Positions 740 to 58,127 of a DNA stretch of 64,000 nt are shown piece after piece (the first letter of the stretch is position 1; each line of letters begins with the position of its first letter). Location: assembly GCA_035772405.1 (NCBI GenBank), contig JAYKKM010000439.1:3381001-3445000 (forward strand). The letters are read 5' to 3'. The notes beneath the pieces are model-generated. The model saw only the letters and a list, made by a program, of their open reading frames with translations. It searched no databases and was not told the origin of the DNA. The stretch is from Chrysogorgia sp. JL179-B06. Lineage: Eukaryota > Cnidaria > Anthozoa > Scleralcyonacea > Chrysogorgiidae. A program made the position numbers and the translations under genes.

Positions 740-1006
740 CTGTATTGGTTCTTCAGGCGCCTTCTCAAGCTCAGGAACATCCAGTTCACCAATTTTAATA
801 ACATCGTCTTTAATGTGGAAACTGGGAACCTCTTTAACCTCATGTAGTATTACTGTTTCCATGGGTTTTCGTTTGACTTCTTCTTTAGGTGGAGCTTCAA
901 ATTTTGGAATATGTTTCTTTTCTTTTGGTATTTCTTCTATCACAATATGTCCAATATCCAGTTGTTTAGGATACCTGGGTTTTTCAGGCTCCTCTTGGAA
1001 TGTCAC
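740..1006 (-). CDS. E28: 89-codon A module (unit 1), last exon in the window
   Basis: The acceptor TCACACGACAG precedes 1006 and the donor is ATACAG|GTAAGAAAA at 740/739. The exon is 267 bases, phase 0-0. It differs from E22 by METVILHEV (Pro to Leu). A good donor follows it, so at least one further exon must lie left of base 1. Confidence 0.88.
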
Positions 1007-1594
1007 CTGTCGTGTGAAAATTGAAACAAAAGTTATGATTTCCAGCAAGAGACGATTATTTCGACATTTATATATAATTGTGATACATAAGAGGGCATCG
1101 ATGTACAGGTTTCTCGAAAATGCGAACTAAACACATAGGATATCGTTAAATCTAAACTCATTTATATCGTCATTATAATTATTATATAATGAAATCACTT
1201 AAGATATTGCTCATTAATGTTGCATTGAACCTAGAAACGCGGTTTAAAATCATCTGTGAGATTGTGAGAAATTATGTATCAGTCTTCGCCGTTCAAAAGC
1301 GGAATTTTTCTTTAAAGTTCCGTAGGATAATAATGCATCGTATCAAATAGTTTAGTTGCTGAATGAACTGTCAAGTAAGGTTTATCTTCGGAATTCTATT
1401 GGTGTTTTCATTAATATATGCACGTCCAATCTTTTAACATGATTTATATCGTCCACTTTAAGCAGATTTCGTAAATCACTGATTCATTAATACTCAACAA
1501 TTATAGTTGTACATAACGTGGTGAAAAAGACAATTCTTGCTTGTATTTTCCGTTCTTTTTCATCTATACTATACCTTCGTACGTTTTTTCTTAC

Positions 1595-1819
1595 CTGCAT
1601 TGGTTCTTCAGGCGTCTTCTCCAGCTCAGGGATATCCAGGAGACTGGGAACCTCTTTAACCTCATGTGGTATTACTGTTTCTATAGGTTTTGGTTTGACC
1701 TCTTCTTTATCCAGATTTGGAACATTTTTCTTTTCTTTTGGTATTTCTTCTATCACAATACGTCCGACATCCAGCTGTATAGGATACCTGGGTTTTTCAG
1801 GCTCTTCTTGGGATGTCAC
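1595..1819 (-). CDS. E27: 75-codon short B module (unit 1)
   Basis: The acceptor AATTATCTCAG precedes 1819 and the donor is ATGCAG|GTAAGAAAA at 1595/1594. The exon is 225 bases, phase 0-0. The protein is identical to the other B copies. Confidence 0.88.
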
Positions 1820-2135
1820 CTGAGATAATTTATACATAATTATGATTTCCAGAGGTCTATTATTTGGAGGGCACTTTTAGAGTCAAGCATGTTTCTAACT
1901 ACGAGGACTAAGTCAAAGTTACATATTGCTAAAAAAAACGAGGGCGAGTTGTTTAATTGTTTTAATAAATAGTTTTCTACTTATATCCCTTAACTACAAA
2001 TATTTCTATCCAGTTAATGTAAAATTGTTGAAAAATGTCGAAAGGAACATTAGTTTCAGCCTTAGATTTAGGCAGTGAACTATGCTTGTAACGAACTTCG
2101 GAAGTTAACGAGTGAGATTTGAAATGTGTTTTGTC

Positions 2136-3022
2136 TAGATAGATAGATAGATGGTTTATTTAAAAAAATACAAAGTAGCCAAAGGCTGAATAGCGTATCT
2201 CGTTAAAATTACATTTGTCGTAATAGATAGTCTTATACAGTATTAAAATTACACATTTATTTGTAAAATATATTTACATGAACTTACGTAAAATAGCTAT
2301 AACAATATGTCAAACCTAAACTAAAAACTAATTATAAAAACTGGAAATTGACTGTTTCATATTGGCATTAAGGCATGAAGACATCATGTAAGTATTCTTA
2401 AAGCGGTTGGTCTTCCATCTGGGAACATTAAATGATTGCGAATGTCTCAAATTGTGCTTAGTTTCATAAGAAGGCGGTAATAATTTATGTAGTCGATGGT
2501 TCTTATCATTAACAATGGTATAGTAAACAGTGTATTACATAATCCTTGTGATGGTCAGCTAGATGGACGACGTTCATACATGTTAGTGCTTCAGTATAAT
2601 CGAGATTGGAGCAAATGATCGATATTGCCATCTTTTGTATGCGTTCTAATTCACACATTAGATATTGAGGAACAGCATAATCTAAAAGAGATCTAATGCA
2701 GGTAATGTAAAATAGCCCTAGATCTTTTCGAGGGACGTTAGCCCTCTTCAACTGCACTAAAAATATTGCCTTTTAGAGGCTTTTTTAATAACCTCGTTTA
2801 CATGTGCATTCCACGATAGATTACTTGTAATCGTTAACCCTAAAAGCTTAACACTGTCTACAATCTTCAGATCCTTACCCACAGCCCTAATTTAGTTCCC
2901 TGAGGTACTCCTGATGGAACTGAGCCCCATTCAGACAGACAACCCACTGCAAGTTTGATTATTTGGAAGCGATTGCTGAGAATTCGTTTAAACGAACCCA
3001 AGTAAACAGTATAAACGTCTTA
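2136..3022 (-). mobile_element. 5'-truncated LINE copy in unit 1 (degenerate)
   Basis: A minus-strand non-LTR remnant ending in a short TATC-type tail at 2136-2153, typical of CR1/L2-like 3' ends. The protein fragment reads NVPRKDLGLFYITCIRSLLDYAVPQ. An internal deletion near 2882 removed the segment encoding the YVDD region. It lies in the sense direction of the host gene. Confidence 0.75.
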
Positions 3023-4026
3023 CCGTTAACAATTTCATATTCATTTGTTTGCTATTTTGTTCTCTCTATGATAGAGATTTTCCCTAAATCTTATAAATGA
3101 TAGATATTTTCCCTAAATCTTAGCTCATTTCCACTATCACAGAAAATCTAAAGACGTCATCGTTGACAGCTGATAGATAATGATTTATTAACCAATAAGA
3201 ATCGCAGATTTCCGATAGGTGATGATTGACAGGCGACTATAGAGCTTCTCGTGTCGTGATTGGTCGAGATGAACCGCCTATCATGTTATAGTCAACATTT
3301 TCAGCTATTTAAAAATGGCGGTTTCTTGATTTGTCGATGTTGCGGACGAAAAAGTTAATAAAATAAAACAAAATACTATTAATAATAATATTAATACTAA
3401 GTAACTAATTGTTATTTAGTAAATATCGATCAATCTCGCCAATTCGCGATTCTTATTGGTTAATCAAATAATCATATATTTAACAATTAGACAATGATCC
3501 CGAGTTGTCTATGAGCAGATAGTCAACGAGGGCATAGTTAATGATTAACAGAAATACAGTGTATGACATTTTCAGATAAATGAGCAAACATTTTAAGTGA
3601 AGTTTTTTTCAAATTTCCTGTCCTAGTGAGAACAAAAACAGCAAACCAACGAATGGAATGAAATGTTTTATGGTAAGACATTTATATTGTTTACTTGGGC
3701 TCGTTTAAACAAAATAACAGGAGTAAAAAGGCATTTAAAAATCTCGCTCGCTTTCACTGCCAAAATCTAAAGCTATAAAACTGATGTTCCTTTCGACATT
3801 CTTCAACAATTTTACATCACCTGGATAGAAATATCTTTATAAATACGATTGTTCGTCTGTGTGTCAATCCGTGTGCAATCCACTTTCCCTAACCCTCCCT
3901 CCTACCGTGGAAGCTCCATCTGTTTTACCAGTATTGTAGTAATACTGCGCAAGAAAAGTTCTATTAATTTGCCGTATTTTCCCGTTCTTTTTCATCTACA
4001 CTATACCTTCGTACCGTTTTTCTTAC

Positions 4027-4293
4027 CTGTATTGGCTCTTCAGGCGCCTTCTCAAGCTCAGGGACATCCAGTTCACCAATTTTAATAACATCGTCTTTAA
4101 TGTGGAAACTGGGAACCTCTTTAACCTCATGTGGTATTACTGTTTCCATGGGTTTTCGTTTTACTTCTTCTTTAGGTGGAGCTTCAAATTTTGGAATATG
4201 TTTCTTTTGTTTTGGTATTTCTTCTATCACAATATGTCCAATATCCAGTTGTTTAGGATACCTGGGTTTTTCAGACTCCTCTTGGAATGTCAC
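4027..4293 (-). CDS. E26: 89-codon A module (unit 2)
   Basis: The acceptor TCACACGACAG precedes 4293 and the donor is ATACAG|GTAAGAAAA at 4027/4026. The exon is 267 bases, phase 0-0. It differs from other A copies by EESEKPRYPK (Pro to Ser) and PKQKKHIPK (Glu to Gln). Confidence 0.88.
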
Positions 4294-4878
4294 CTGTCGT
4301 GTGAAAATTGAAACAAAAGTTATGATTTCCAGCAAGAGACGATTATTTCGACATTTATATATAATTGTGATACATAAGAGGGCATCGATGTACAGGTTTC
4401 TCGAAAATGCGAACTAAACACATAGGATATCGTTAAATCTAAACTCATTTATATCGTCATTATAATTATTATATAATGAAATCACTTAAGATATTGCTCA
4501 TTAATGTTGCATTGAACCTAGAAACGCGGTTTAAAATCATCTGTGAGATTGTGAAAAATTATGTATCAGTCTTCGCCGTTCAAAAGCGGAATTTTTCTTT
4601 AAAGTTCCGTAGGATAATAATGCATCGTATCAAATAGTTTAGTTGCTGAATGAACTGTCAAGTAAGGTTTATCTTCGGAATTCTATTGGTGTTTTCATTA
4701 ATATATGCACGTCCAATCTTTTAACATTTATATCGTCCACTTTAAGCAGATTTCGTAAATAACTGATTCATTAATACTCAACAATTATAGTTGTATATAA
4801 CGTGGTGAAAAAGACAATTCTTGCTTATATTTTCCGTTCTTTTTCATCTATACTATACCTTCGTACGTTTTTTCTTAC

Positions 4879-5103
4879 CTGCATTGGTTCTTCAGGCGTC
4901 TTCTCCAGCTCAGGGATATCCAGGAGACTGGGAACCTCTTTAACCTCATGTGGTATTACTGTTTCTATAGGTTTTGGTTTGACCTCTTCTTTATCCAGAT
5001 TTGGAACATTTTTCTTTTCTTTTGGTATTTCTTCTATCACAATACGTCCGACATCCAGCTGTATAGGATACCTGGGTTTTTCAGGCTCTTCTTGGGATGT
5101 CAC
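4879..5103 (-). CDS. E25: 75-codon short B module (unit 2)
   Basis: The acceptor AATTATCTCAG precedes 5103 and the donor is ATGCAG|GTAAGAAAA at 4879/4878. The exon is 225 bases, phase 0-0. The protein is the same as the other B copies. Confidence 0.88.
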
Positions 5104-5390
5104 CTGAGATAATTTATACATAATTATGATTTCCAGAGGTCTATTATTTGGAGGGCACTTTTAGAATCAAGCATGTTTCTAACTACGAGGACTAAGTCAA
5201 AGTTACATATTGCTAAAAAAAACGAGGGCGAGTTGTTTAATTGTTTTAATAAATAGTTTTCTACTTAGATCCCTTAACTACAAATATTTCTATCCAGTTA
5301 ATGTAAAATTGTTGAAAAATGTCGAAAGGAACATTAGTTTCAGCCTTAGATTTAGGCAGTTAACGAGTGAGATTTGAAATGTGTTTTGTC

Positions 5391-6540
5391 TAGATAGATA
5401 GATAGATGGTTTATTTAAAAAAATACAAAGTAGCCAAAGGCTGAATTGCGTGTCTCGTTAAAATTACATTTGTCGTAATAGATAGTCTTATACAGTATTA
5501 AAATTACAAATTTATTTGTAAAATATATTTACATGAACTTACGTAAAATAGCTATAACAATATGTCAAACCTAAACTAAAAACTAATTATAAAAACTGGA
5601 AATTGACTGTTTCATATTGGCATTAAGGCATGAAGACATCATGTAAGTATTCTTAAAGCGGTTGGTCTTCCATCTGGGAACATTAAATGATTGCGAATGT
5701 CTCAAATTGTGCTTAGTTTCATAAGAAGGCGGTAATAATTTATGTAGTCGATGGTTCTTATCATTTACAATGGTATAGTAAACAGTGTATTACATAATCC
5801 TTGTGATGGTCAGCTAGATGGACGACGTTCATACATGTTAGTGCTTCAGTATAATCGAGATTGGAGCAAATGATCGATATTGCCATCTTTTGTATGCGTT
5901 CTAATTCACACATTAGATATTGTGGGATAGAGTAGTGAAACACAGGAACAGCATAATCTAAAAGAGATCTAATGCAGGTAATGTAAAATAGCCCTAGATC
6001 TTTTCGAGGGACGTTAGCCCTCTTCAGCTGCACTAAAAATATTACCTTTAGAGGCTTTTTTAAGAACCTCGTTTACATGTGCATTCCACGATAGATTACT
6101 TGTAATCGTTAACCCTAAAAGCTTAACACTGTCTACAATCTTCAGATCCTTACCCATAACCTTAATCGGCTCTAATTCCTACTGATTTCTAGCAAAGGAA
6201 ATTGGTAGTTCTTTACATTTGTTGGTGTTTAGTTGAACTCTGTTATCAAGAGACCATTGAGCCACGTTGTCAGTGATAAGTTGGGCGCTGCTGACATCGT
6301 TTTTCCGGACGACTTCTGATACCGTCGTATACATCCATGTACTTCCACACGCGGGCGTCACTAATTACAAGGTCATTTATCATTATGATAAATAACCACA
6401 GCCCTAATTTAGTTCCCTGAGGTACTCCTGATGGAACTGAGCCCCATTCAGACAGACAACCCACTGCAAGTTTGATTATTTGGAAGCGATTGCTGAGAAT
6501 TCGTTTAAACGAACCCAAGTAAACAGTATAAACGTCTTAC
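5391..6540 (-). mobile_element. 5'-truncated LINE copy in unit 2 (degenerate)
   Basis: Reverse transcriptase remnant on the minus strand: SGVPQGTKLG and FIIMINDL in one frame, then a broken YVDD region (frameshift near 6330), then CIRSLLDYAVPVFHYSIPQY. The tail is (TATC)n at 5391. The same insertion is present in all four units, so it predates the array amplification. Confidence 0.8.
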
Positions 6541-7543
6541 CGTTAACAATTTCATATTCATTTGTTTGCTATTTTGTTCTCTCTATGATAGAGATTTTCC
6601 CTAAATCTTATAAATGATAGATATTTTCCCTAAATCTTAGCTCATTTCCACTATCACAGAAAATCTAAAGACGTCATCGTTGACAGCTGATAGATAATGA
6701 TTTATTAACCAATAAGAATCGCAGATTTCCGATAGGTGATGATTGACAGGCGACTATAGAGCTTCTCGTGTCGTGATTGGTCGAGATGAACCGCCTATCA
6801 TGTTATAGTCAACATTTTCAGCTATTTAAAAATGGCGGTTTCTTGATTTGTCGATGTTGCGGACGAAAAAGTTAATAAAATAAAATAAAATACTATTAAT
6901 AATAATATTAATACTAAGTAACTAATTGTTATTTAGTAAATATCGATCAATCTCGCCAATTCGCGATTCTTATTGGTTAATCAAATAATCATATATTTAA
7001 CAATTAGACAATGATCCCGAGTTGTCTATGAGCAGATAGTCAACGAGGGCATAGTTAATGATTAACAGAAATACAGTGTATGACATTTTCAGATAAATGA
7101 GCAAACATTTTAAGTGAAGTTTTTTTCAAATTTCCTGTCCTAGTGAGAACAAAAACAGCAAACCAACGAATGGAATGAAATGTTTTATGGTAAGACATTT
7201 ATATTGTTTACTTAGGCTCGTTTAAACAAAATAACAGGAGTAAAAAGGCATTTAAAAATCTCGCTCGCTTTCACTGCCAAAATCTAAAGCTATAAAACTG
7301 ATATTCCTTTCGACATTCTTCAACAATTTTACATCACCTGGATAGAAATATCTCTATAAATACGATTGTTCGTCTGTCTGTCAATCCGTGTGCAATCCAC
7401 TTTCCCTAACCCTCCCTCCTACCGTGGAAGCTCCATCTGTTTTACCAGTATTGTATTAATACTGCGCAAGAAAAGTTCTATTAATTTGCCGTATTTTCCC
7501 GTTCTTTTTCATCTACACTATACCTTCGTACCGTTTTTCTTAC

Positions 7544-7810
7544 CTGTATTGGCTCTTCAGGCGCCTTCTCAAGCTCAGGGACATCCAGTTCACCAATTTT
7601 AATAACATCGTCTTTAATGTGGAAACTGGGAACCTCTTTAACCTCATGTGGTATTACTGTTTCCATGGGTTTTCGTTTTACTTCTTCTTTAGGTGGAGCT
7701 TCAAATTTTGGAATATGTTTCTTTTCTTTTGGTATTTCTTCTATCACAATATGTCCAATATCCAGTTGTTTAGGATACCTGGGTTTTTCAGGCTCCTCTT
7801 GGAATGTCAC
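7544..7810 (-). CDS. E24: 89-codon A module (unit 3)
   Basis: The acceptor TCACACGACAG precedes 7810 and the donor is ATACAG|GTAAGAAAA at 7544/7543. The exon is 267 bases, phase 0-0. Its protein is identical to E22 within the exon; differences are confined to flanking intron bases. Confidence 0.88.
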
Positions 7811-8395
7811 CTGTCGTGTGAAAATTGAAACAAAAGTTATGATTTCCAGCAAGAGACGATTATTTCGACATTTATATATAATTGTGATACATAAGAGGGC
7901 ATCGATGTACAGGTTTCTCGAAAATGCGAACTAAACACATAGGATATCGTTAAATCTAAACTCATTTATATCGTCATTATAATTATTATATAATGAAATC
8001 ACTTAAGATATTGCTCATTAATGTTGCATTGAACCTAGAAACGCGGTTTAAAATCATCTGTGAGATTGTGAAAAATTATGTATCAGTCTTCGCCGTTCAA
8101 AAGCGGAATTTTTCTTTAAAGTTCCGTAGGATAATAATGCATCGTATCAAATAGTTTAGTTGCTGAATGAACTGTCAAGTAAGGTTTATCTTCGGAATTC
8201 TATTGGTGTTTTCATTAATATATGCACGTCCAATCTTTTAACATTTATATCGTCCACTTTAAGCAGATTTCGTAAATAACTGATTCATTAATACTCAACA
8301 ATTATAGTTGTATATAACGTGGTGAAAAAGACAATTCTTGCTTATATTTTCCGTTCTTTTTCATCTATACTATACCTTCGTACGTTTTTTCTTAC

Positions 8396-8620
8396 CTGCA
8401 TTGGTTCTTCAGGCGTCTTCTCCAGCTCAGGGATATCCAGGAGACTGGGAACCTCTTTAACCTCATGTGGTATTACTGTTTCTATAGGTTTTGGTTTGAC
8501 CTCTTCTTTATCCAGATTTGGAACATTTTTCTTTTCTTTTGGTATTTCTTCTATCACAATACGTCCGACATCCAGCTGTATAGGATACCTGGGTTTTTCA
8601 GGCTCTTCTTGGGATGTCAC
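8396..8620 (-). CDS. E23: 75-codon short B module (unit 3)
   Basis: The acceptor AATTATCTTAG precedes 8620 and the donor is ATGCAG|GTAAGAAAA at 8396/8395. The exon is 225 bases, phase 0-0. Its protein is identical to E21. The shared TTAG acceptor separates units 3 and 4 from units 1 and 2, which have TCAG. Confidence 0.88.
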
Positions 8621-8934
8621 CTAAGATAATTTATACATAATTATGATTTCCAGAGGTCTATTATTTGGAGGGCACTTTTAGAGTCAAGCATGTTTCTAAC
8701 TACGAGGACTAAGTCAAAGTTACATATTGCTAAAAAAAACGAGGGCGAGTTGTTTAATTGTTTTAATAAATAGTTTTCTACTTAGATCCCTTAACTACAA
8801 ATATTTCTATCCAGTTAATGTAAATTGTTGAAAAATGTCGAAAGGAACATTAGTTTCAGCCTTAGATTTAGGCAGTGAACTATGCTTGTAACGAACTTCG
8901 GAAGTTAACGAGTGAGATTTGAAATGTGTTTTGT

Positions 8935-10085
8935 CTAGATAGATAGATAGATGGTTTATTTAAAAAAAATACAAAGTAGCCAAAGGCTGAATTGCGTATC
9001 TCGTTAAAATTACATTTGTCGTAATAGATAGTCTTATACAGTATTAAAATTACAAATTTATTTGTAAAATATATTTACACGAACTTACGTAAAATAGCTA
9101 TAACAATATGTCAAACCTAACTAAAAACTAATTATAAAAACTGGAAATTGACTATTTCATATTGGCATTAAGGCATGAAGACATCATGTAAGTATTCTTA
9201 GAGCGGTTGGTCTTCCATCTGGGAACATTAAATGTTTGCGAATGTCTCAAATTGTGCTTAGTCTCATAAGAAGGCGGTAATAATTTATGTAGTCGATGGT
9301 TCTTATCATTAACAATGGTATAGTAAACAGTGTATTACATAATCCTTGTGATGGTCAGCTAGATGGACGACGTTCATACATGTTAGTGCTTCAGTATAAT
9401 CGAGATTGGAGCAAATGATCGATATTGCCCTCTTTTGTATGCGTTCTAATTCACACATTAGATATTGTGGGATAGAATAGTGAAACACAGGAACAGCATA
9501 ATCTAAAAGAGATCTAATGCAGGTAATGTAAAATAGCCCTAGATCTTTTCGAGGGACGTTAGCCCTCTTCAGCTGCACTAAAAAATATTACCTTTAGAGG
9601 CTTTTTTAATAACCTCGTTTACATGTGCATTCCACGATAGATTACTTGTAATCGTTAACCCTAATAGCTTAACACTGTCTACAATCTTCAGATCCTTACC
9701 CATAACCTTAATCGGCTCTAATTCCTACTGATTTCTAGCAAAGGAAATTGGTAGTTCTTTACATTTGTTGGTGTTTAGTTGAACTCTGTTATCAAGAGAC
9801 CATTGAGCCACGTTGTCAGTGATAAGTTGGGCGCTGCTGACATCGTTTTTCCGGACGACTTCTGATACCGTCGTATCATCCACATACTTCCACACATGGG
9901 CGTCACTAATTACTAGGTCATTTATCATTATGATAAATAACCACGGCCCTAATTTAGTTCCTTGTGGTACTCCTGATGGAATTGAGCCCCATTCAGACAG
10001 ACAACCCACTGCAAGTTTGATTCTTTGGAAGCGATTGCTGAGAATTCGTTTAAACGAACCCAAGTAAACAGTATAAACGTCTTAC
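8935..10085 (-). mobile_element. 5'-truncated LINE copy in unit 3 (best preserved)
   Basis: An open stretch from 10063 to 9725 encodes RT motifs in order: PSGVPQGTKLGPWLF, INDL, and YVDDTTVSE, with the catalytic Asp pair retained. The downstream frame encodes RSLLDYAVPVFHYSIPQYL (9578-9309). No endonuclease or ORF start is present, so it is a dead 5'-truncated copy. Confidence 0.82.
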
Positions 10086-11087
10086 CGTTAACAATTTCAT
10101 ATTCATTTGTTTGCTATTTTGTTCTCTCTATGATAGAGATTTTCCCTAAATCTTATAAATGATAGATATTTTCCCTAAATCTTAGCTCATTTCCACTATC
10201 ACAGAAAATCTAAAGACGTCATCGTTGACGGCTGATAGATAATGATTTATTAACCAATAAGAATCGCAGATTTCCGATAGGTGATGATTGACAGGCGACT
10301 ATAGAGCTTCTCGTGTCGTGATTGGTCGAGATGAACCGCCTATCATGTTATAGTCAACATTTTCAGCTATTTAAAAATGGCGGTTTCTTGATTTGTCGAT
10401 GTTGCGGACGAAAAAGTTAATAAAATAAAATAAAATACTATTAATAATAATATTAATACTAAGTTAAAATTGTTATTTAGTAAATATCGATCAATCTCGC
10501 CAATTCGCAATTCTTATTGGTTAATCAAATAATCATATATTTAACAATTAGACAATGATCCCAAGTTGTCTATGAGCAGATAGTCAACGAGGGCATAGTT
10601 AATGATTAACAGAAATACAGTGTATGACATTTTCAGATAAATGAGCAAACATTTTAAGTGAAGTTTTTTTCAAATTTCCTGTCCTAGTGAGAACAAAAAC
10701 AGCAAACCAACGAATGGAATGAAATGTTTTATGGTAAGACATTTATATTGTTTACTTGGGCTCGTTTAAACAAAATAACAGGAGTAAAAAGGCATTTAAA
10801 AATCTCGCTCGCTTTCACTGCCAAAATCTAAAGCTATAAAACTGATGTTCCTTTCGACATTCTTCAACAATTTCACATCACCTGGATAGAAATATCTCTA
10901 TAAATACGATTGTTCGTCTGTGTGTCAATCCGTGTGCAATCCACTTTCCCTAACCCTCCCTCCTACCGTGGAAGCTCCATCTGTTTTATCAGTATTGTAT
11001 TAATACTGCGCAAGAAAAGTTCTATTAATTTGCCGTATTTTCCCGTTGTTTTTCATCTACACTATACCTTCGTACCGTTTTTCTTAC

Positions 11088-11354
11088 CTGTATTGGCTCT
11101 TCAGGCGCCTTCTCAAGCTCAGGGACATCCAGTTCACCAATTTTAATAACATCGTCTTTAATGTGGAAACTGGGAACCTCTTTAACCTCATGTGGTATTA
11201 CTGTTTCCATGGGTTTTCGTTTTACTTCTTCTTTAGGTGGAGCTTCAAATTTTGGAATATGTTTCTTTTCTTTTGGTATTTCTTCTATCACAATATGTCC
11301 AATATCCAGTTGTTTAGGATACCTGGGTTTTTCAGGCTCCTCTTGGAATGTCAC
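11088..11354 (-). CDS. E22: 89-codon A module (unit 4)
   Basis: The acceptor TCACACGACAG precedes 11354 and the donor is ATACAG|GTAAGAAAA at 11088/11087. The exon is 267 bases, phase 0-0. Its protein equals that of the A exon in unit 3. By hand count it has 17 Glu, 13 Pro, 13 Lys and 8 Val in 89 residues, so about 57 percent is P, E, V or K. Confidence 0.88.
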
Positions 11355-11939
11355 CTGTCGTGTGAAAATTGAAACAAAAGTTATGATTTCCAGCAAGAGA
11401 CGATTATTTCGACATTTATATATAATTGTGATACATAAGAGGGCATCGATGTACAGGTTTCTCGAAAATGCGAACTAAACACATAGGATATCGTTAAATC
11501 TAAACTCATTTATATCGTCATTATAATTATTATATAATGAAATCACTTAATATATTGCTCATTAATGTTGCATTGAACCTAGAAACGCGGTTTAAAATCA
11601 TCTGTGAGATTGTGAGAAATTATGTATCAGTCTTCGCCGTTCAAAAGCGGAATTTTTCTTTAAAGTTCCGTAGGATAATAATGCATCGTATCAAATAGTT
11701 TAGTTGCTGAATGAACTGTCAAGTAAGGTTTATCTTCGGAATTCTATTGGTGTTTTCATTAATATATGCACGTCCAATCTTTTAACATTTATATCGTCCA
11801 CTTTAAGCAGATCTCGTAAATAACTGATTCATTAATACTCAACAATTATAGTTGTACATAACGTGGTGAAAAAGACAATTCTTGCTTATATTTTCCGTTC
11901 TTTTTCATCTATACTATACCTTCGTACGTTTTTTCTTAC

Positions 11940-12164
11940 CTGCATTGGTTCTTCAGGCGTCTTCTCCAGCTCAGGGATATCCAGGAGACTGGGAACCTCT
12001 TTAACCTCATGTGGTATTACTGTTTCTATAGGTTTTGGTTTGACCTCTTCTTTATCCAGATTTGGAACATTTTTCTTTTCTTTTGGTATTTCTTCTATCA
12101 CAATACGTCCGACATCCAGCTGTATAGGATACCTGGGTTTTTCAGGCTCTTCTTGGGATGTCAC
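11940..12164 (-). CDS. E21: 75-codon short B module (unit 4)
   Basis: The acceptor AATTATCTTAG precedes 12164 (TTAG rather than TCAG) and the donor is ATGCAG|GTAAGAAAA at 11940/11939. The exon is 225 bases, phase 0-0. The core reads RYPIQLDVGRIVIEEIPKEK. Compared with the A exon it lacks three residues before DKEEVKPK and eleven residues that include HIKDDVIKIG, both lost in frame. Confidence 0.88.
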
Positions 12165-12480
12165 CTAAGATAATTTATACATAATTATGATTTCCAGAGG
12201 TCTATTATTTGGAGGGCACTTTTAGAGTCAAGCATGTTTCTAACTACGAGGACTAAGTCAAAGTTACATATTGCTCAAAAAAACGAGGGCGAGTTGTTTA
12301 ATTGTTTTAATAAATAGTTTTCTACTTAGATCCCTTAACTACAAATATTTCTATCCAGTTAATGTAAAATTGTTGAAAAATGTCGAAAGGAACATTAGTT
12401 TCAGCCTTAGATTTAGGCAGTGAACTATGCTTGTAACGAACTTCGGAAGTTAACGACTGAGATTTGAAATGTGTTTTGTC

Positions 12481-13628
12481 TAGATAGATAGATAGATGGT
12501 TTATTTAAAAAAATACAAAGTAGCCAAAGGCTGAATTGCGTATCTCGTTAAAATTACATTTGTCGTAATAGATAGTCTTATACAGTATTAAAATTACAAA
12601 TTTATTTGTAAAATATATTTACATGAACTTACGTAAAATAGCTATAACAATATGTCAAACCTAAACTAAAAACTAATTATAAAAACTGGAAATTGACTAT
12701 TTCATATTGGCATTAAGGCATGAAGACATCATGTAAGTATTCTTAAAGCGGTTGGTCTTCCATCTGGGAACATTAAATGTTTGCGAATGTCTCAAATTGT
12801 GCTTAGTCTCATAAGAAGGCGGTAATAATTTATGTAGTCGATGGTTCTTATCATTAACAATGGTATAGTAAACAGTGTATTACATAATCCTTGTGATGGT
12901 CAGCTAGATGGACGACGTTCATACATGTTAGTGCTTCAGTATAATCGAGATTGGAGCAAATGATCGATATTGCCCTCTTTTGTATGCGTTCTTATTCACA
13001 CATTAGATATTGTGGGATAGAATAGTGAAACACAGGAACAGCATAATCTAAAAGAGATCTAATGCAGGTAATGTAAAATAGCCCTAGATCTTTTCGAGGG
13101 ACGTTAGCCTTCTTCAGCTGCACTAAAAATATTACCTTTAGAGGCTTTTTTAATAACCTCGTTTACATGTGCATTCCACGATAGATTATTGTGATCGTTA
13201 ACCCTAAAAGCTTAACACTGTCTACAATCTTCAGATCCTTACCCATAACCTTAATCGGCTCTAATTCCTACTGATTTCTAGCAAAGGAAATTGGTAGTTC
13301 TTTACATTTGTTGGTGTTTAGTTGAACTCTGTTATCAAGAGACCATTGAGCCACGTTGTCAGTGATAAGTTGGACGCTGCTGACATCGTTTTTCTGGACG
13401 ACTTCTGATACCGTCGTATATCATCCACATACTTCCACACATGGGCGTCACTAATTACTAGGTCATTTATCATTATGATAAATAACCACGGCCCTAATTT
13501 AGTTCCCTGAGGTACTCCTGATGGAACTGAGCCCCATTCAGACAGACAACCCACTGCAAGTTTGATTCTTTGGAAGCGATTGCTGAGAATTCGTTTAAAC
13601 GAACCCAAGTAAACAGTATAAACGTCTT
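12481..13628 (-). mobile_element. 5'-truncated LINE copy in unit 4 (degenerate)
   Basis: Same element as in unit 3, with two extra bases near 13415 that shift the frame right after KYVDD and further changes in the downstream part. (TATC)n tail at 12481. Confidence 0.78.
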
Positions 13629-13899
13629 ACCGTTAACAATTTCATATTCATTTGTTTGCTATTTTGTTCTCTCTATGATAGAGATTTTCCCTAAATCTTA
13701 TAAATGATAGAGATTTTCCCTAAATCTTAGCTCATTTCCACTATCCGCACAGAAAATCTAAAGACGTCATCGTTGACGTCTGATAGATAATGATTTATTA
13801 ACCAATAAGAATCGCAGATTTCCGATAGGTGATGATTGACAGGCGACTATAGAGCTTCTCGTGTCGTGATTGGTCGAGATGAACCGCCTATCATGTTAT

Positions 13900-15470
13900 A
13901 GTCAACATTTTCAGCTTTTAAAATTGGCGGTTGCTTGATTTGTCGATGTTGCGGACGAAAAAGTTAATAAAATAAAATAAAATACTATTAATAATAATAT
14001 TAATACTAAGTAACTAATTGTTATTTAGTAAATATCGATCATCTCGCCAATTCGCGATTCTTATTGGTTAATCAAATAATCATAAATTTAACAATTAGAC
14101 AATGAGCCCAAGTTGTCTATGAGCAGATAGTCAACGAGGGCATAGTTAATGATTAACAGAAATACAGTGTATGACATTTTCAGATAAATGAGCAAACATT
14201 TTAAGTGAAGTTTTTTTCAAATTTCCTGTCCTAGTGAGAACAAAAACAGCAAACCAACGAATGGAATGAAATGTTTTATGGTAAGGTATTTATATTGTTT
14301 ACTTGGGCTCGTTTAAACAAAATAACAGGAGTAAAAAGGCATTTAAAAATCTCGCTCGCTTTCACTGCCAAAATCTAAAGCTATAAAACTGATGTTCCTT
14401 TCGACATTTTTCAACAATTTTACATCAACTGGATAGAAATATCTCTATAAATACGATTGTTCGTCTGTGTGTCAATCCGTGTGCAACCCTAACCCTCCCT
14501 CCTACCGTGGAAGTTCCACCTGTTTTACCAGTATTGTATTAATACTGCACAAGAAAAGTTCTATTAATTTACCGTATATTTCCATTCTTTTTCATCTACA
14601 CTATACCTTCGTACGTTTTTTCTTACCTGTATTGGCTCTTCAGGCGCCTTCTCCAGCTCAGGGACATCCAGTTCACCAATTTTAATAACATCGTCTTTAA
14701 TGTGGAAACTGGGAACCTCTTTAACCTCATGTGGTATTACTGTTTCCATGGGTTTTCGTTTTACTTCTTCTTTAGGTGGAGCTTCAAATTTTGGAATATA
14801 AACATATTTCTTTTCTTGTGGTATTTCTTCTATCACAATATGTCCAATATCCAGTTGTTTAGGATACCTGGGTTTTTCAGGCTCCTCTTGGAATGTCACC
14901 TGTCGTGTGAAAATTGAAACAAAAGTTATGATTTCCAGCAAGAGACGATTATTTCGACATTTATATATAATTGTGATACATAAGAGGGCATCGATGTACT
15001 TCTTTAAGGTTTTCGTTTTTTTGTTAAGCAAGTTTCTCGAAAATGCGAACAAAATACATAGGATATCGTTAAATCTAAACTCATTTATATATTCATTATG
15101 TTATGTAATGAAATCACTTACGATATTGCTCATTAATGTTTCACTGAACCTAAAAACACGGTTTAAAATCATCTGTGCGATTGTGAGAATGTGAGATGTA
15201 TCAGTCTTCTCCGTTCAAAAGCTTACATTTTCTTTAAAGTTCCGTGGGATCATACATCATTTCAAATAGTTTAGTTGCTGAATGAACTGTCAAATAAGGT
15301 TTGTCTTCGGAATTCTATTGGTGTTTTCATTAATTTGTGCACGTCCAATCTTTTAACATTTATATCGCCCACTTTAGGCAAATTTGTAAATAACTGCTTC
15401 GTTAATATTAAACAAAGTTGCATAACGTGTTGAAAAATATAATTCTTGTTAATCTTTCCCGTTCTTTTTT
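13900..15470. repeat. Partial, diverged fifth unit of the 3.5-kb array
   Basis: The first 1.1 kb matches the other units well. After about 15000 it diverges by substitutions and small indels, with an extra block in the 15000-15030 region. It contains E20 and leads into E19; the LINE piece is absent here. It is the older border of the array. Confidence 0.82.
14627..14899 (-). CDS. E20: 91-codon A-type module with a two-residue insertion
   Basis: The acceptor TCACACGACAG precedes 14899 and the donor is ATACAG|GTAAGAAAA at 14627/14626. The exon is 273 bases, phase 0-0. It matches the A exons of the array except for PQEKKYVYIPKFE, where two residues are added. It belongs to the partial fifth unit. 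Confidence 0.88.
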
Positions 15471-15826: not shown

Positions 15827-16026
<200 letters not shown>

Positions 16027-23995: not shown

Positions 23996-24229
<234 letters not shown>

Positions 24230-34600: not shown

Positions 34601-34886
34601 TGGAGATATGTTGCTGCAAAATTATGGAACGCGCTACCGAACACTCTAAGAACAATCACAAGTTTTAACGAATTTAAAAATTGTACTAAAAAAATTGATC
34701 TGTCATCTTTAATTTTGTAAAAATAATTGTTAATTTTGTAAAATAATTTTTAATGTTAACTAATTTTATTGTTAATTTTAACATGCATGTATATATTTCT
34801 AGTTTATTTCTGTGGCCTACCTGGAAATTAGCTTCTTTTTAGCTAAGTGTAGTGACCACGTTAAATAAAAGTTATTAGAAATAATG
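31608..34886 (+). mobile_element. Full-length single-ORF non-LTR retrotransposon (CR1/L2-like)
   Basis: It begins after CCAACCTCTTAAA (GGGAAACAGCAG...) and ends near AAATAAAAGTTATTAGAAATAATG, judged by comparison with paralogous intron sequence near 29270. It contains about 100 bases of 5' UTR, one intact ORF and about 165 bases of 3' UTR. It lies antisense to the host gene, in the intron between E12 and E13. Confidence 0.85.
31706..34720 (+). CDS. LINE ORF: APE endonuclease plus reverse transcriptase, 1004 aa
   Basis: An intact 1004-codon ORF without stops or frameshifts. The N-terminal 65 residues carry a W-x-C-x-x-C-x-L-P pattern (WSCILCALPKFSDSFF), a possible zinc-binding remnant. Residues about 70-300 form an APE-type endonuclease: NLNINSL, QETK, GGGGI, YKPP, GDLNCD and the terminal SDH. 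Residues about 480-830 form the reverse transcriptase: NYRPLTILPSLSK, SMDLSKAFD, GIPQGSILGP, YADD (catalytic Asp pair) and LLGVTVD. The C-terminus ends ...SWRYVAAKLWNALPNTLR, a common LINE tail. It would nick target DNA and copy its own RNA there. There is no separate ORF1 and no RNase H. Confidence 0.93.
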   Translation: MSNSTLQYLLNQPDIDWSCILCALPKFSDSFFTDSILPGHSISVSESTTTERVQAEVTQVRNNNRKQCIIANLNINSLPNKFVEIKEWLESNVFDILSIQETKIDRTFPDTQFQVDGYNLFRRDRVKGGGGIIIFIRDSIVALRKKSTGRVLESILLELRIGQRQFALISAYKPPSVDNATFTKEITVVLDEATRYCENIICLGDLNCDILDPLNNNKQGKCLLDICDIYDLDSLINSPTRISANRASCLDVILTNVPAFMKESGIIETGLSDHNLVYTVLNTKLLRPKAKTIIKRSFKNFNQTAFVDDLSRVPFSTAYVFDDPDDVYWCWEKLFNQVLDDHAPIKVLKKRPSTESNFITTDTRMAMRERDRYKKRYQKSRNPTDWENYRVMRNKVVSLRRKAIQAHFKNLCEEKYADQRKFWRTIKPYINSRKVKNNGLIVLKDNEKIIRDQKEVAETLNQFFTSLERSEQISEEKRTPDLSHIKMNLSATTPTLSLRKTNPKEVKEVMKNMKSNKSTGCDLIPPRAVKESADALCYPFSTLFNYVLDSAKIPQQWKRSEVAAVYKKECSLTKQNYRPLTILPSLSKVFETLIHSRMSPHFEGIFHKYVFAYRKHYGCDTALLSLTEQWRKELDNHKIIGLVSMDLSKAFDTLPHELIVRKLKEYGADGNTAALMQDYLANRRQRVKLGDQFSSWQDINIGIPQGSILGPLLFNIFMNDLVHVINHSTLSTYADDTQIFYADHDPTRIEEVINNDLASIDKWYENNAMKRNHSKYQSVIMGKTEYKPQFLCEGTNIPITDNFELLGVTVDDELKFEKHIAKICRKVSQQVAVLKRMRKLLPFETRKDLYQAFIRPHFNYCADTWHFCSKGATEKLEKVNERALRFVLHDKHSTYEVLLEKLGQTTLLNQRFHKIICTVFKSIHANTAPNCINDLLNLRKTKYNLRGKDILSIPKANSTTYGLKSWRYVAAKLWNALPNTLRTITSFNEFKNCTKKIDLSSLIL

Positions 34887-38049: not shown

Positions 38050-38400
38050 TAACTTCACATGTGAAGATAAGAATGATAAATATTTTCACATGTGAAGATA
38101 TCATTTTTATTTTCACATGTGAAGATATCATTTTTATTTTCACATGTGAAGATATCATTTTTATTTTCACATGTGAAGATATCATTTTTATTTTCACATG
38201 TGAAGATATCATTTTTGTTTTCACATGTGAAGATATTTTTATTTTCACATGTGAAGATATCATTTTTATTTTCACATGTGAAGATATCATTTTTATTTTC
38301 ATATGAGAAGATATCATTTTTATTTTCACATGAGAAGATATCATTTTTATTTTCACATGTGAAGATATTATTTTTATTTTCACATGTGAAGATATCATTT
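38050..38400. repeat. 27-bp minisatellite with palindromic CACATGTG core
   Basis: About a dozen copies of a unit CACATGTGAAGATATC + ATTTTTATTTT. Each contains two small palindromes (CACATGTG and GATATC). The 27-bp period keeps frames open on both strands (nine-residue periodic peptides), but there is no sign of a gene. Single copies of the core occur near 55228 and 62341. Confidence 0.93.
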
Positions 38401-38925
38401 TACGTTTCTAAGCAACGTAAAGTATTGTTAAAGGCTAGCGATGTATCTGGCGGACTCACGGACGGACAGGCAAGTTTTATAACGTTTTGTGACGTAAGAG
38501 AGATTGCGTCTCGTGACACTTGAGTGCATATTTTGATGACCATCCATCGAAGTATTGAACGTGAATCGATTTTTTGAATTCTTTGAAGCGAGGACAGATT
38601 TTCTTGTTAAGGTAAGATGACTAATAATTAAGATAGTAGCTGTTAAACGAAATTTGACACAGCGAGATATCATCTGCGATTTTTTTTGCCATTGCAATGT
38701 CTTATATTTTGGCATGACAGCTAATATCAAATCCGTTTCGTTTGTGAATAGAATTATAGCAATCACTTCCAACGATCGAATGTAAATATCAAATATTAAT
38801 CGTTTCCAGTTACATTTGTGCCACGATATTAATTACGCCCCATCCCAAACGTAGAATCACTGCGTACCTATTTTTCTGAATAGGAGAAATCCTGATATTT
38901 TATCGATATCTATAGCTGTAAGTAC

Positions 38926-44662: not shown

Positions 44663-44786
44663 TATACATCTCATTTCAGCCGGAAGGCCTGAAAGTTGCA
44701 TTTTTCGCAACTGGTCCCGGTTTGGTCTTAAAATGTATATATTCCAACACTCGAAATTTTCCTTCACCATAAATCCTTAGAACCTA

Positions 44787-46372
<1,586 letters not shown>

Positions 46373-49164: not shown

Positions 49165-49554
49165 CTTGTCCACTCTTTCTGTGTACGTTTCTCTTTCCAT
49201 ACTTCTAGATTCATAATGCGGCTTCACCTCAATCACGGCAAATGTTGCGACTTCAGCAACATCCTCTCTCTCCTGCACACTGGGAACCTCTTTTGTTTTC
49301 GCCACCTTTTTCTTAGACCTTTTTGGGACTTTTTTCTTTTTTGGAATTTCGTCGATAATAATACATCCAATTTCTAGCTCCTTTGGATATCTTGATCTTC
49401 CAGTCTCCTCTGTGTCAAGACTATCCTCTGTCTCTGTAGCCTTATCGTGGAAAGTCCTCGTGTCATCAGTACCTAGCTTAGTCTGTACGTGACGAAATGT
49501 GTCGTATTCTACATCTCTAACATGAAGATATTCGTCGAATTCAGTATCGTTTAC
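49165..49554 (-). CDS. E5: 130-codon exon with the YPKxLxIG core and a Lys-rich insert
   Basis: The acceptor ATAATTTCAG precedes 49554 and the donor is GACAAG|GTACTG at 49165/49164. The exon is 390 bases, phase 0-0. The acidic start is VNDTEFDEYLHVRD. Residues about 60-80 carry the shared core (RYPKELEIG then IIIDEIP), followed directly by a run of Lys/Arg (KKKKVPKRSKKKV). The segment TKEVPSVQEREDV matches the KEVPSxHIKxDV part of later modules. This is the most 5' exon with the full core. Its position between E4 and E6, which are of the other module type, suggests early shuffling of two exon types. Confidence 0.8.
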
Positions 49555-51307: not shown

Positions 51308-51585
51308 CTGAAATCTTGGTTGTATTTCTACAGGAGCCGATTGAACTGGTTCTTCCCTTGTTGATTTTTCGATCAATCTCTGTATGTCTTGATTAGCTTG
51401 GTACGACTTATATGGTTCAGTATCCTCATCTGATGGTGTTTCTTCGACTGGTTTTACCACACTCGCTTCCAAAAATCTTTCAATGTTAATTGTATTCTCA
51501 GATTTTGAGTTTTCATATAGTGAAAATAACCCATCAGTGGTATTGTCTTGAGGATCTTGGTCTTCATCTCTTTTAGGCACTTCTT
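51308..51585 (-). CDS. E4: second half of the split module, QRLIEK motif
   Basis: The acceptor AAAATTTAG precedes 51585 and the donor is TTTCAG|GTAAACG at 51308/51307. The exon is 278 bases: two bases complete the last codon of E3, then 92 codons. The join reads ...QEKES-E-EVPKRDEDQD. The block NIERFLEASVV ... NQDIQRLIEK aligns with NIQSFLEKKV ... NYDIQRLIEK in E6, so E3+E4 and E6 are paralogous modules. Acidic and probably disordered; function unknown. Confidence 0.78.
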
Positions 51586-51703: not shown

Positions 51704-51794
51704 CTGATTCTTTTTCTTGGAACTCATTAGTTGTTGTTTTCTCTTGTAATTCGGATTCTTCAATATCGTTTTCTTCTTTCTCTTCGAGTAACAC
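51704..51794 (-). CDS. E3: small 91-base exon, first half of a split VLPEFK-type module
   Basis: The acceptor TATTCTAG precedes 51794 and the donor is TCAG|GTAAAG at 51704/51703. It encodes 30 codons starting VLLEEKEENDIEESELQ, plus one extra base (phase 1). The start matches that of E6 (VLPEFKEINEIEEP) and E7 (ALPKFKDINEIEGP) in position and pattern. The single hanging base is completed exactly by the two bases that open E4, which is good evidence that both exons are real. Confidence 0.72.
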
Positions 51795-52930: not shown

Positions 52931-52937
52931 AACCTAC

Positions 52938-53291
52938 CCTTTTCTCAGGTGACAGACTTAATATCGTACTTGTTTTTTCCAAATCGGAGACCTTTCTCTT
53001 TAGAGGATTAAAATCTTGATCGTGGTTCCCATTCTTTTCAACAGGCTGATACAAAGGAGGCGTCTCTTCGACCACAATATCATTACGGGCTGTCCCAGAT
53101 GTCACTGCGTAGTGAATTTTATAATTCCTCGTCGTCTCTATACGTCCAAAGGTAATATCTGACAACTGCTGTTGGTAAACATTTGCTTGAAGAGGTTCTC
53201 CATTGAACGATTTTGCTCTTATTGTTAGCGGTGTCACATGTAGGTGTGATTTTCTGGGCTTTTTCTCGATATGATCTGGTGATGGTTCAAC
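52938..53291 (-). CDS. E2: 118-codon linker exon
   Basis: The acceptor ATTTATTACAG precedes 53291 and the donor is AGG|GTAGGT at 52938/52937. The exon is 354 bases, phase 0-0. The protein begins VEPSPDHIEKKPRKS and ends LSPEKR. It includes a Lys/Arg-rich start, a Gln-rich middle (NVYQQQLSD) and a V-V-E-E-T-P-P-L-Y stretch that only faintly recalls the later modules. The correct phase on both sides supports it as part of the same gene. The donor is weaker than in the repeat exons. Confidence 0.72.
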
Positions 53292-55550: not shown

Positions 55551-55557
55551 CACTTAC

Positions 55558-58127
55558 ATTTCTTCGTTTAAGAGTTGGAGTATCCGTCTCATCGGAGTCT
55601 TTATTGAAAATATCTTTGTTATCAGTTTCGTCTGCATAAAATGGCGTTGATGTATTAAATGATTCACTCAGTTCAAGTGTATCTCGTTCGATTTTTGGTG
55701 AATCGACCTCTTGATGTTTCTCATCCTCACGACTTATAATGTCATCAACTTCGATATCGCAAACACTTTTCTCGAGTGTTGCAGGAGGGTAGGTCTTTCT
55801 ACGTTTTTTCTTCAGTTTGAAATTCACTTCATTTCGTATTACCGTTTCAAATGGTAATTCATTGAGGGAGTAAGCTGGTGCAAGAGGCCTATAAGAACTT
55901 GGTTGCCTCAATTGAATTTCTAAACTGCTTTGCTTTTGGGCTGGTTCCTTTTCTAAGTTTAAAGACTTGGAACGCTTCGTTAGTTTACGGGTTACTTTTA
56001 GAGTTGGTTCGGATTTCCATTTTTTCATTAATTTTCCCGAATATGGTTTTCGAACTGGGCTTAGCTCTAAATAACATTGCACTCGAAACTTTTGTTGTGG
56101 TTGTTTTTTTGTTGTCTTTGTTTTTAACTGTTGTACCGAAAGATTCCTGCTGTAATTGGTTTCGCTGCTAAATAGGTTTTCCAAAGCCGAATCATCATGC
56201 AGTATTGAACTCTCTAGTGTTTCTCTCTTGGTTACAGAGATATTTTCAAACACTTGATTAGTGTCGATTGTGTGTCGCTTGGTTCTCGAAGGAAGACTGT
56301 CTGAATCACTCGTGCAGTTTTCTGTGTGTGTAGGACGTGTTTTCAATACTGTCCTGCTGTGTCTTTGATTTTTAACCTCTGGACGAAGATGGGAGAATCT
56401 TACTTTTCGTTTTACAGCAACATGGGTCGGAGTTTGTCTTTTGGATTCTAAATGATGAGTTTCTTCTTCGTTATCATCATGAACTATAATATCAACAAGT
56501 CTTTCAGTTGGTTGTCGACTGGTATCCTGCTGCGAAGTTTGCTGGTCTAAAATATTTAGACTGTCTTTGCTTTGCATATCATTTGAAATTTGGCTGTTCA
56601 GCATATGTAATTCCGCGGCTGATGAAATTTCTTCGACGTGTTTTGCCAGATCGTTTAAGGCGTGCTTGTTTGAATCCTCTTGTTGTTGTTGTTGTTGTGG
56701 TGGTGGTGAATTTTCACGATCTTTTGTGTTATTCATTCGAGATTCTTCGTAATCTTCCAGAATTTGCAGATGACCTTGATAACTTTGCGTTTTGTACAAC
56801 GCGGGTTTTGTTTGATTTACATCAGCAAAACCTTTCTTTTCGACAGTACCAGACACCTCTCTAGTGAGATATTGAATTTCTTTGTTGCTTTCCGTAGACA
56901 TTTCTTCTTTTGAATAACCAACTGATGGTTGTGCTGTGTCTGTTAATCTCATTCGTTTAGATACAACTCCTGAGTCTACATGATCTGTCATTAGATCTTG
57001 TACTTCACGAGTTTCCATGGACATAGTAAACGTTTCTCGTTTATTCCTAAAGGGTTGATCTGTTACGGTTCCTTTGTATGGTACGGATTCTTCATCATCA
57101 TCATTGATTGTTTGACCTTTCAGATCTTCATGCACTTCATAAGTTTCCATGGACATAACGACCCTTTCTCGTTCATTCATAAACTGTTGATTTATTAAGG
57201 CTCCTGTGTATGGTACGGATTCGTCTTCATCATTGATTGTTCGACTTTGCAGATCTTGTACTTCACGAGTTTCCATGGACATAACGACCCTTTCTCGTTC
57301 ATTCATAAACGGCTGATTTGTCAAAGTTATTTTATATGGTACGGATTCTTCTTCATCGTTGATTGTTTGACTTTTCAGATCTTCACGTAGTTCATAAGTT
57401 TCCATGGACATAACGACCCTTTCTCGTTCTTTCATGAACGGTTGATCTGTTACGGTTCCTTTGTGTGGTACGGATTCTTCTTCGTCATTAATTGTTTGAC
57501 TTTTCAGATCTTCATGCACTTCATAAGTTTCCATGGACATAACGACACTTTCTCGTTCATTCATAAACGGTTGATTTGTTAAAGTTCCTTTGTATTGTAC
57601 GGATTCTTCTTCATCATTGATTGTTTGACTTTTCAGATCTTGTACTTCACGAGTTTTCATGGACATAACGACCCTTTCACGTTCATTCATAAACGGTTGA
57701 TTTATTAAGGTTCCTTTATATGATATGGATTCTTCATCATGGATTGTTTGACTTTTCGTGAAGTAGCCTACTTGTGTTTCCTCTTTCGATGAGTAAGAGT
57801 AACTTTGCGACTCACTTGTATAACTCACTTTTTCATCCGATGTTACGAAATGCAAGTCCTTGGTTGACACATCTTCCAATAATTGTGATTCCTGCAAAAT
57901 TTGACTTTGTTTCTCAGTTTGATTAACGTCGGAAAAATATGCAATTTCACTGAAGCTTGAAAAAGCTTCACTTTCAATAAGGTCGCTAATTTTACTTGGC
58001 GTTCCATCTTCTTCATCACTGCTGTTCATTAAGATTCTCCTACGCCTCCTATCTTTGGCAGACATATCCTCTTCTCTCAAATCAGACATGATAACCACGT
58101 CTCTTTAAATGCAACCCCGAATTCCTC
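55558..58127 (-). CDS. E1: first coding exon, disordered basic N-terminus with six 42-residue repeats
   Basis: The acceptor is TTGCTTTCAG just upstream of 58127, and the donor is AAT|GTAAGTG at 55558/55557. The start chosen is the ATG at 58089 (MSDLREED). An in-frame TAA lies between the acceptor and that ATG, so the exon carries the end of the 5' UTR and this is the first usable start. It encodes 844 residues, phase 0 at the donor. Residues about 11-20 hold an RRRRR cluster. Residues about 113-365 hold six tandem repeats of about 42 residues with the core F-M-N-E-R-E-R-V-V-M-S-M-E-T. A short Gln run follows (PPPQQQQQQ). The last third is strongly basic (KLKKKRRKT, RSKSLNLEK), with Ser/Thr-rich acidic patches near the end. 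The stretch PFETVIRNEV resembles the PMETVIPHEV part of the downstream modules. There is no recognisable enzymatic fold; I read it as a disordered head region. The function is unknown. Confidence 0.85.

What the first reader, a model, noticed from the sequence alone, without database searches (positions are those of the whole stretch)
740..58127. A giant gene built from more than 20 duplicated phase-0 exons encoding a P/E/V/K-rich module
Twenty-eight minus-strand exons were placed by splice sites. All but the E3/E4 pair are exact multiples of three and start and end between codons, so any can be duplicated, deleted or skipped without a frameshift. They encode a repeated, cysteine-poor module that is about 57 percent P+E+V+K in one copy. 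This is the design of molecular springs (titin PEVK) or multivalent scaffolds, but the module core is not one I recognise. The analogy to titin is inference; the exon structure is read directly.
Basis: partly seen in the sequence, partly recalled or inferred. Interest (0 to 1): 0.9.

Follow-up and report, generated by a model that had tools for sequence, protein, structure and literature searches.

The report
Octocoral giant exon-array tether protein
This genome, likely an octocoral's, carries two neighbouring genes, each with a row of nearly forty similar coding blocks for which no catalogued protein family was found; each row is predicted to be spliced into a giant, mostly unfolded protein that would serve as a long flexible tether with many docking sites.

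Summary
All 28 exons have AG/GT borders, join in one open frame (3,265 aa, no stop) and are phase 0 except at the E3/E4 junction. The gene is larger than the window: flanking sequence adds 15 module exons and a last exon with a stop, giving 44 exons, 86.7 kb and 5,565 aa. It holds 37 module copies; exons are better conserved than introns, and pN/pS is below 1 in three of four module classes, the fourth having too few changes. A second gene on the same strand, about 62 kb upstream, has 39 module copies (3 partial), related ends and two frame breaks. Relatives of module and tail occur in other, unnamed sequences; most array copies here are each other's closest kin. The mitochondrial contig carries MutS, so the genome is likely an octocoral's. 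No credible Pfam or PDB match; the module is predicted disordered. Titin domains were not found in the exons scanned. Best reading: a giant disordered tether or multivalent scaffold with conserved ends and an exon-duplicating, length-variable middle. Splicing and function are untested.

The parts
55558..58127 (-). E1: 5' UTR end, start codon (58089) and 844-aa head; holds 43-aa repeats (129 nt x 6.0) and a KWKSEPTL...LPFETVIRNEVNF stretch shared with gene B
52938..53291 (-). E2, 118 aa, with a DITFGRIETTR...DIVVEETP stretch
51704..51794 (-). E3, 91 nt, phase 0/1
51308..51585 (-). E4, 278 nt, phase 1/0, holds an NQDIQRLIEK motif
49165..49554 (-). E5, divergent long module, 130 aa
46825..47211 (-). 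E6, second module type (NYDIQRLIEK), 129 aa
43452..43721 (-). E7, partial copy of E6 (by eye), 90 aa
42708..43076 (-). E8, divergent module, 123 aa
42052..42291 (-). E9, divergent module, 80 aa
38926..39156 (-). E10, module, 77 aa
36677..36943 (-). E11, module, 89 aa
35327..35593 (-). E12, module, 89 aa
30980..31246 (-). E13, module, 89 aa
29873..30136 (-). E14, module, 88 aa
28088..28354 (-). E15, module, 89 aa
26913..27182 (-). E16, module, 90 aa
25854..26123 (-). E17, module, 90 aa
23672..23941 (-). E18, module, 90 aa
15503..15772 (-). E19, module, 90 aa
14627..14899 (-). E20, module, 91 aa
11940..12164 (-). E21, short module, 75 aa
11088..11354 (-). E22, module, 89 aa
8396..8620 (-). E23, short module, 75 aa
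7544..7810 (-). E24, module, 89 aa
4879..5103 (-). E25, short module, 75 aa
4027..4293 (-). E26, module, 89 aa
1595..1819 (-). E27, short module, 75 aa
740..1006 (-). E28, module, 89 aa; the array goes on beyond the window (E29-E43 to -19090, last exon E44 -28601..-25713)
740..14626 (-). four tandem blocks of about 3.3-3.5 kb, each holding one 89-aa and one 75-aa module exon; 95.7-97.0% identical averaged over all BLAST hits (cross-matches between exon types included)

Best explanation
The window carries most of a gene whose 28 coding blocks join in one open frame and are predicted to be spliced into a giant, largely disordered protein that likely works as a long flexible tether presenting many copies of a docking motif between two conserved ends. 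Shown: exon chain, phases, continuation to a stop codon, module homology, exon constraint, the paralogous second gene. Predicted: splicing, disorder, octocoral origin. Inferred: that the head and the tail, which are conserved between the two genes, anchor the protein; that the motifs YPKxLDIGxIVIEEIP, EVKEVP and DVIKIGxLDV bind partners; and that phase-0 exon duplication or skipping tunes length and number of binding sites without breaking the frame. The array appears to grow by tandem duplication of two- and three-exon units and to have been renewed in this lineage.
For: Exon chain: 28 of 28 exons confirmed; full model 44 exons, 5,565 aa, 0 internal stops; 44 of 44 acceptors AG, 42 of 43 donors GT, the other GC at E33; 40 of 42 internal exons multiples of three. 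Constraint: among 28 long array modules pN 0.074, pS 0.124 (ratio 0.60); two gene B classes 0.39 and 0.47; exon identity 0.905 against 0.746 and 0.483 for intron flanks in the first class. Disorder: module model has mean pLDDT 65.8, pTM 0.13, no secondary structure, with 39 sequences; charge-hydropathy on the disordered side for head, array and tail N part, and on the line for the last 333 aa. Shared motifs, by loose patterns: DIGxIVIEEIP-like in 33 of 37, EVKEVP-like in 35 of 37, KIGxLD-like in 30 of 37 gene A modules; many of the same columns are conserved in 36 gene B modules. Conserved ends: heads 43% identical over 115 aa; tail 53, 33 and 37% identical to P0003, P0004 and P0005 over 94, 39 and 33% of it. 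Turnover: tree; 3-module units up to 98.8% and 2-module units of gene B 95-97% identical.
Against: No RNA, protein or binding data. pN/pS of 0.6 is only moderate constraint. The five 75-aa copies show 8 pairwise differences and no synonymous change, too few to judge. The C-terminal 333 aa gave a useless model (mean pLDDT 31.7), so 'folded anchor' is unproven. The 5' UTR exon and promoter were not found. Gene B has two frame breaks, so it may be damaged or misassembled; a script placed both borders for only 20 of its 39 modules, 8 of them in phase 0 at both ends. In the tree E5 falls among gene B modules, not with gene A.
Confidence: 0.55

Rival explanations
1. A pure entropic spring: the array gives elastic length like titin's PEVK region, and the repeated sequence has no specific partner.
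For: PEVK mean 56%; 30 of 33 array modules reach 0.54 PEVK+A, the threshold tuned for titin exons, applied here to whole modules; disordered prediction; conserved ends flank a middle that turns over.
Against: A spring needs composition more than sequence, yet many of the same motif columns are kept in both genes and in other sequences. Ile+Leu+Val are about 22% of the protein, unusual for an entropic spring (recalled).
Confidence: 0.25
2. An intracellular regulatory or ciliary/nuclear scaffold whose array is a store of phosphorylation or docking sites and has no mechanical role.
For: Head rich in Ser and basic runs, with no obvious signal peptide by eye; repeated short motifs.
Against: No tested localisation; no catalogued domain in the exons scanned.
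Confidence: 0.15
3. A decaying or selfish exon array: tandem duplication made many copies of a block that is no longer translated.
For: Recent near-identical blocks with retroelement-like pieces; gene B has two frame breaks.
Against: No stop or frame break in the 44-exon chain of gene A; pN/pS below 1 in three of four classes; exons more conserved than introns; tail 53% identical to P0003.
Confidence: 0.04
4. The near-identical blocks are an assembly artefact.
For: Blocks of about 3.5 kb repeated four times.
Against: Blocks differ in length and by 3-4% over BLAST hits; modules of the same family also occur in a second cluster and in other sequences.
Confidence: 0.01

Closest known systems
Titin PEVK region (vertebrate TTN; PMC6469411, passages seen)
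   Same: Row of many P/E/V/K-rich exons; expansion by segmental duplication, with LINE elements implicated there and a retroelement lying in the array here.
   Different: Array exons here are mostly 225-273 nt against titin means of about 76 and 93 (as printed, presumably nt); PEVK+A 57.5% against 79-84%; no Ig, FN3 or kinase found; different repeat sequence.
Cnidarian connectitin (PMC12198301, passages seen)
   Same: Giant protein proposed as a spring in cnidarians.
   Different: Connectitin has SEC14, spectrin repeats, Ig, RhoGEF, PH, SH3 and kinase domains; none was found in the exons scanned.
AHNAK / periaxin-type repeat scaffolds (recalled, no call)
   Same: Very long, repetitive, low-Cys intracellular proteins with alternating hydrophobic and charged residues.
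   Different: As recalled, those arrays sit in one giant exon, here in separate phase-0 exons; no direct sequence comparison was made beyond Pfam.
Cnidoin, nematocyst elastomer (PMC4321713, title and start of abstract in a listing only)
   Same: Cnidarian elastic protein.
   Different: Described there as a silk-like elastomer of the stinging organelle; not compared by alignment.

Membership tests
Titin / connectin | Ig and FN3 domain arrays and a C-terminal kinase | tested here: not met
   Pfam at E up to 1 on E1, E2, E4-E8, E22 and E44, and at E up to 0.1 on further window modules including E9 and E10: none. E3, E17, E19, E23-E43 were not submitted
Titin / connectin | PEVK-rich segment made of many frame-preserving exons | tested here: met
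   33 array exons, PEVK mean 56%; 30 of 33 at or above 0.54 counting A; phase 0 throughout the array
Titin / connectin | PPAK-type repeat sequence | tested here: not met
   Module consensus is unrelated by eye; PDB search with the module profile gave 0 hits at E up to 1
Cnidarian connectitin | SEC14, spectrin, RhoGEF, PH, SH3 domains | tested here: not met
   same exons as above; domain list from PMC12198301
Two-gene module family described here | Module profile hits in both genes and in other sequences | tested here: met
   76 modules in two clusters, 76 of 76 on the minus strand; 28 proteins elsewhere
Two-gene module family described here | Conserved head and tail | tested here: met
   head 43% over 115 aa; tail alignments A3 and A4
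Octocoral origin | mitochondrial MutS gene | tested here: met
   MutS_V on C460 beside cox1, repeating at the same 19.0-kb spacing; mtMutS in octocorals and lacking in the hexacoral sister group per PMC3166940
Entropic spring / tether | Extensible disordered chain under load | not testable with these tools
   Only disorder prediction

The most novel reading that the evidence does not exclude
Octocorals evolved, independently of titin, a pair of neighbouring giant genes whose proteins are micrometre-long disordered tethers with conserved anchors and dozens of docking motifs, and whose length and valency are reset in each lineage by whole-exon tandem duplication and could be tuned within one animal by in-frame exon skipping.
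Probability: 0.3. Interest if true: 0.82.

Novelty: new variant of a known kind. Interest (0 to 1): 0.62.

Why it matters
If true, it is a second, titin-free solution to building a giant adjustable disordered protein, in a phylum where the molecular basis of elasticity and muscle is debated. The array gives a natural series of exon births (two- and three-exon units at 95-99% identity) in which the evolution of valency or length can be measured directly. Module, head and tail define a family for which Pfam and PDB gave no credible match.

Tried and rejected
Titin/connectitin membership: not supported, no such domains in the exons scanned. Structure of the C-terminal 333 aa: mean pLDDT 31.7 with 5 sequences, unusable, so no fold search was run. 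PDB by sequence: head 0 hits; module 2 hits at E about 0.6, taken as chance; profile A4 one hit at E 0.96 and A5 none. Pfam weak hits, all below their cut-offs where shown, were dropped: GST_N_5 on the head (E 0.0084), Serglycin, BLM10_N, DUF3671, four on the tail at E 0.11 or worse; SR-25 and Tox-ART-HYD1 on 1 of 4 tail members each; Ctf8 on 4 of 39 and Pilt on 1 of 39 module members. Small matches at 11733, 8189 and 4672 (E about 1 to 3) were considered as micro-exons and dropped by eye after reading one of the three. The module motif as a known short linear motif was considered from memory only and not tested. Literature searches found no description of this family: motif strings (0 papers), giant protein with exon duplication, PEVK with cnidarian and titin, octocoral giant repeats, cnidarian titin and muscle, tandem exons with disorder, octocoral disorder with cytoskeleton; except for the papers named above I saw listings only, and the library is open-access PMC. 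A genome-wide search with the tail protein P0005 was asked for five times and never answered, so the number of tail-bearing genes elsewhere in the genome is unknown. A GFP-family search did not complete either. Automatic exon placement in gene B: both borders for 20 of 39 modules, both in phase 0 for 8; best acceptor in phase 0 for 35 of the 38 that had one; I therefore give no full model of gene B. For the tree two gene B pieces under 60 aa were dropped and identical copies merged, 104 to 94 sequences.

Full report
Observation. Each has an AG before it and a GT after it; 26 of 27 junctions fall between codons, and the E3/E4 junction is phase 1 on both sides, so the frame is kept. The chain starts at an ATG at 58089, 18 nt after an in-frame stop in the same exon, and reads 3,265 residues without a stop. 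Within this gene's introns only 0.5-0.6% of 267-270 nt frames are open, and 1.4e-5 or fewer per position are also flanked by AG and GT. This is a real gene chain, not chance.

The rest of the gene. The window lies at C439:3381001-3445000 of a 781-Mb genome in 522 contigs. In the fetched flank a profile of the module finds 15 further copies on the same strand. They are flanked by splice sites and keep phase 0; one, E33, has a GC donor. A last exon at -28601..-25713 encodes 962 residues and a TAA. The model has 44 exons, spans 86.7 kb and encodes 5,565 aa with no internal stop; 44 of 44 acceptors are AG, 42 of 43 donors GT, and 40 of 42 internal exons are multiples of three. I did not find the 5' non-coding exon, and small exons between E43 and E44 cannot be excluded. 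Farther left lie a glutamine amidotransferase ORF and a CBF/Mak21 ORF, which look like other genes; not every ORF in the flank was scanned.

The module. Gene A has 37 copies (E5, E8-E43). Array copies mostly have 88-91 aa, five have 75 aa, and E5 and E8 are longer exons. The consensus is xFQEEPEKPRYPKQLDIGHIVIEEIPKEKK...KPMETVIxHEVKEVPSxHIKxDVIKIGELDVPELEKxPEEPMQ. PEVK is 56% on average in the 33 copies E11-E43. By loose patterns three motifs recur: DIGxIVIEEIP-like in 33 of 37, EVKEVP-like in 35 of 37, KIGxLD-like in 30 of 37. The last exon holds nine copies of a VTITRQEVRDVP-like motif, which resembles the middle one by eye, and the first exon has six copies of a 43-aa repeat. So repetition has been gained at exon scale and inside exons.

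Constraint. Among 28 long array modules pN is 0.074 and pS 0.124; two gene B classes of 14 modules each give ratios of 0.39 and 0.47. Exon identity (0.905) exceeds that of intron flanks (0.746 and 0.483) in the long class, and exons exceed both flanks in the other three classes too. The five 75-aa copies have too few changes for a ratio. This supports translation, with moderate constraint.

Turnover. Four 3.3-3.5 kb blocks in the window each hold one 89-aa and one 75-aa exon and are 95.7-97.0% identical over BLAST hits. Left of the window two neighbouring three-exon units are 98.8% identical, a third is rearranged against them, and four neighbouring pairs of gene B two-exon units are 95-97% identical. 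In a tree of 94 distinct module sequences, the 27 distinct array modules of gene A group together (support 0.865) beside seven from other sequences (0.975 for those seven), and 14 gene B modules group together (0.973) beside eight from elsewhere (0.733). Gene A modules at the edge of the array (42756, 42052, 38908) branch outside with weaker support (0.35-0.83), and E5 falls among gene B modules. The tree was rooted at midpoint, on a long branch of a short piece. The picture fits birth, loss and homogenisation of exons within each lineage.

A second gene. A search of the whole genome with one module gave 72 matches, 72 on C439, in two clusters. The second cluster, about 62 kb upstream on the same strand, has a 637-aa head ORF, a module array and a tail; the iterated profile counts 39 modules there, 3 of them partial, and 37 in gene A, 76 of 76 on the minus strand. 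Heads share 43% identity over 115 aa. By eye gene B's tail resembles P0004 and P0005 more than gene A's does, while gene A's tail is closest to P0003; P0004 and P0005 each carry one clear module inside the tail protein, P0003 none (best E 0.014). Both paralogues thus seem older than the split from those sources. Gene B has two frame breaks, one in an A run and one in the tail; I cannot say whether they are real.

Origin. Contig C460 (62,736 bp) repeats a cox1 gene and a MutS gene at a spacing of 19,002 bp, the third cox1 being split over two frames; ORFs that look like cox2, atp8 and atp6 lie divergent to cox1 and no tRNA was found in that 4.3-kb piece (those three names are mine by eye). A mitochondrial MutS is known from octocorals and lacking in their hexacoral sister group (PMC3166940, passages). 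The genome is therefore likely an octocoral's.

Known families. Pfam gives nothing over its cut-offs for the exons tested, and PDB nothing credible. Titin PEVK exons average about 76 and 93 (presumably nt) in the two halves, with PEVK+A ratios of 0.84 and 0.79 (PMC6469411, passages); here array exons are about three times longer and average 0.575. Cnidarian connectitin has SEC14, spectrin, Ig, GEF and kinase domains (PMC12198301, passages), none found here. [quoted passage not shown]

Mechanism. The module is predicted unstructured (pTM 0.13, no secondary structure), and head, array and first part of the tail fall on the disordered side of a charge-hydropathy line, the last 333 aa on the line. 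A chain of 5,565 residues at about 0.36 nm each (recalled value) would be about 2 micrometres long if stretched. Conserved ends with a motif-bearing middle that turns over point to a tether or scaffold; conserved hydrophobic motifs shared by two genes and other sequences favour binding sites over a pure spring. The phase-0 rule makes every internal exon but E3 and E4 removable in frame. Splicing, binding, anchoring and mechanics are all untested here.

Noticed in passing
window 31688-34720 (+): Open 1,010-aa frame (stop to stop) with reverse transcriptase and endonuclease domains, a non-LTR-type retrotransposon, in the intron between E12 and E13.
   Followed up: partly
window 5761-13626 (-): ORFs that look like reverse-transcriptase pieces by eye (5761, 9725, 13318) lie inside the duplicated introns, so an element seems to have been copied along with the exon blocks.
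   Followed up: no
G000 C460: The mitochondrial contig is a concatemer of about 3.3 copies of a 19.0-kb unit.
   Followed up: partly
window coordinates 119846-171322, outside the window: Paralogous gene B with 39 modules; two frame breaks (near 164.7 kb and 120.7 kb).
   Followed up: partly
window 56993-57757 (-): 129-nt tandem repeat, 6.0 copies, giving a 43-aa repeat (VVMSMETYEV..LKSQTINDEEESVPYKGT) in E1; not seen by eye in gene B's head ORF.
   Followed up: partly
window 38081-38401: 27-bp tandem array (12 copies) with a TTCACATGTGAA palindrome, in the intron between E10 and E11.
   Followed up: no
window 15830-16023, 23999-24226, 44785-45344, 61717-61845: Long TA runs; two lie just 5' of E19 and E18, whose exon regions are 97% identical, so the run was probably duplicated with them.
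   Followed up: no
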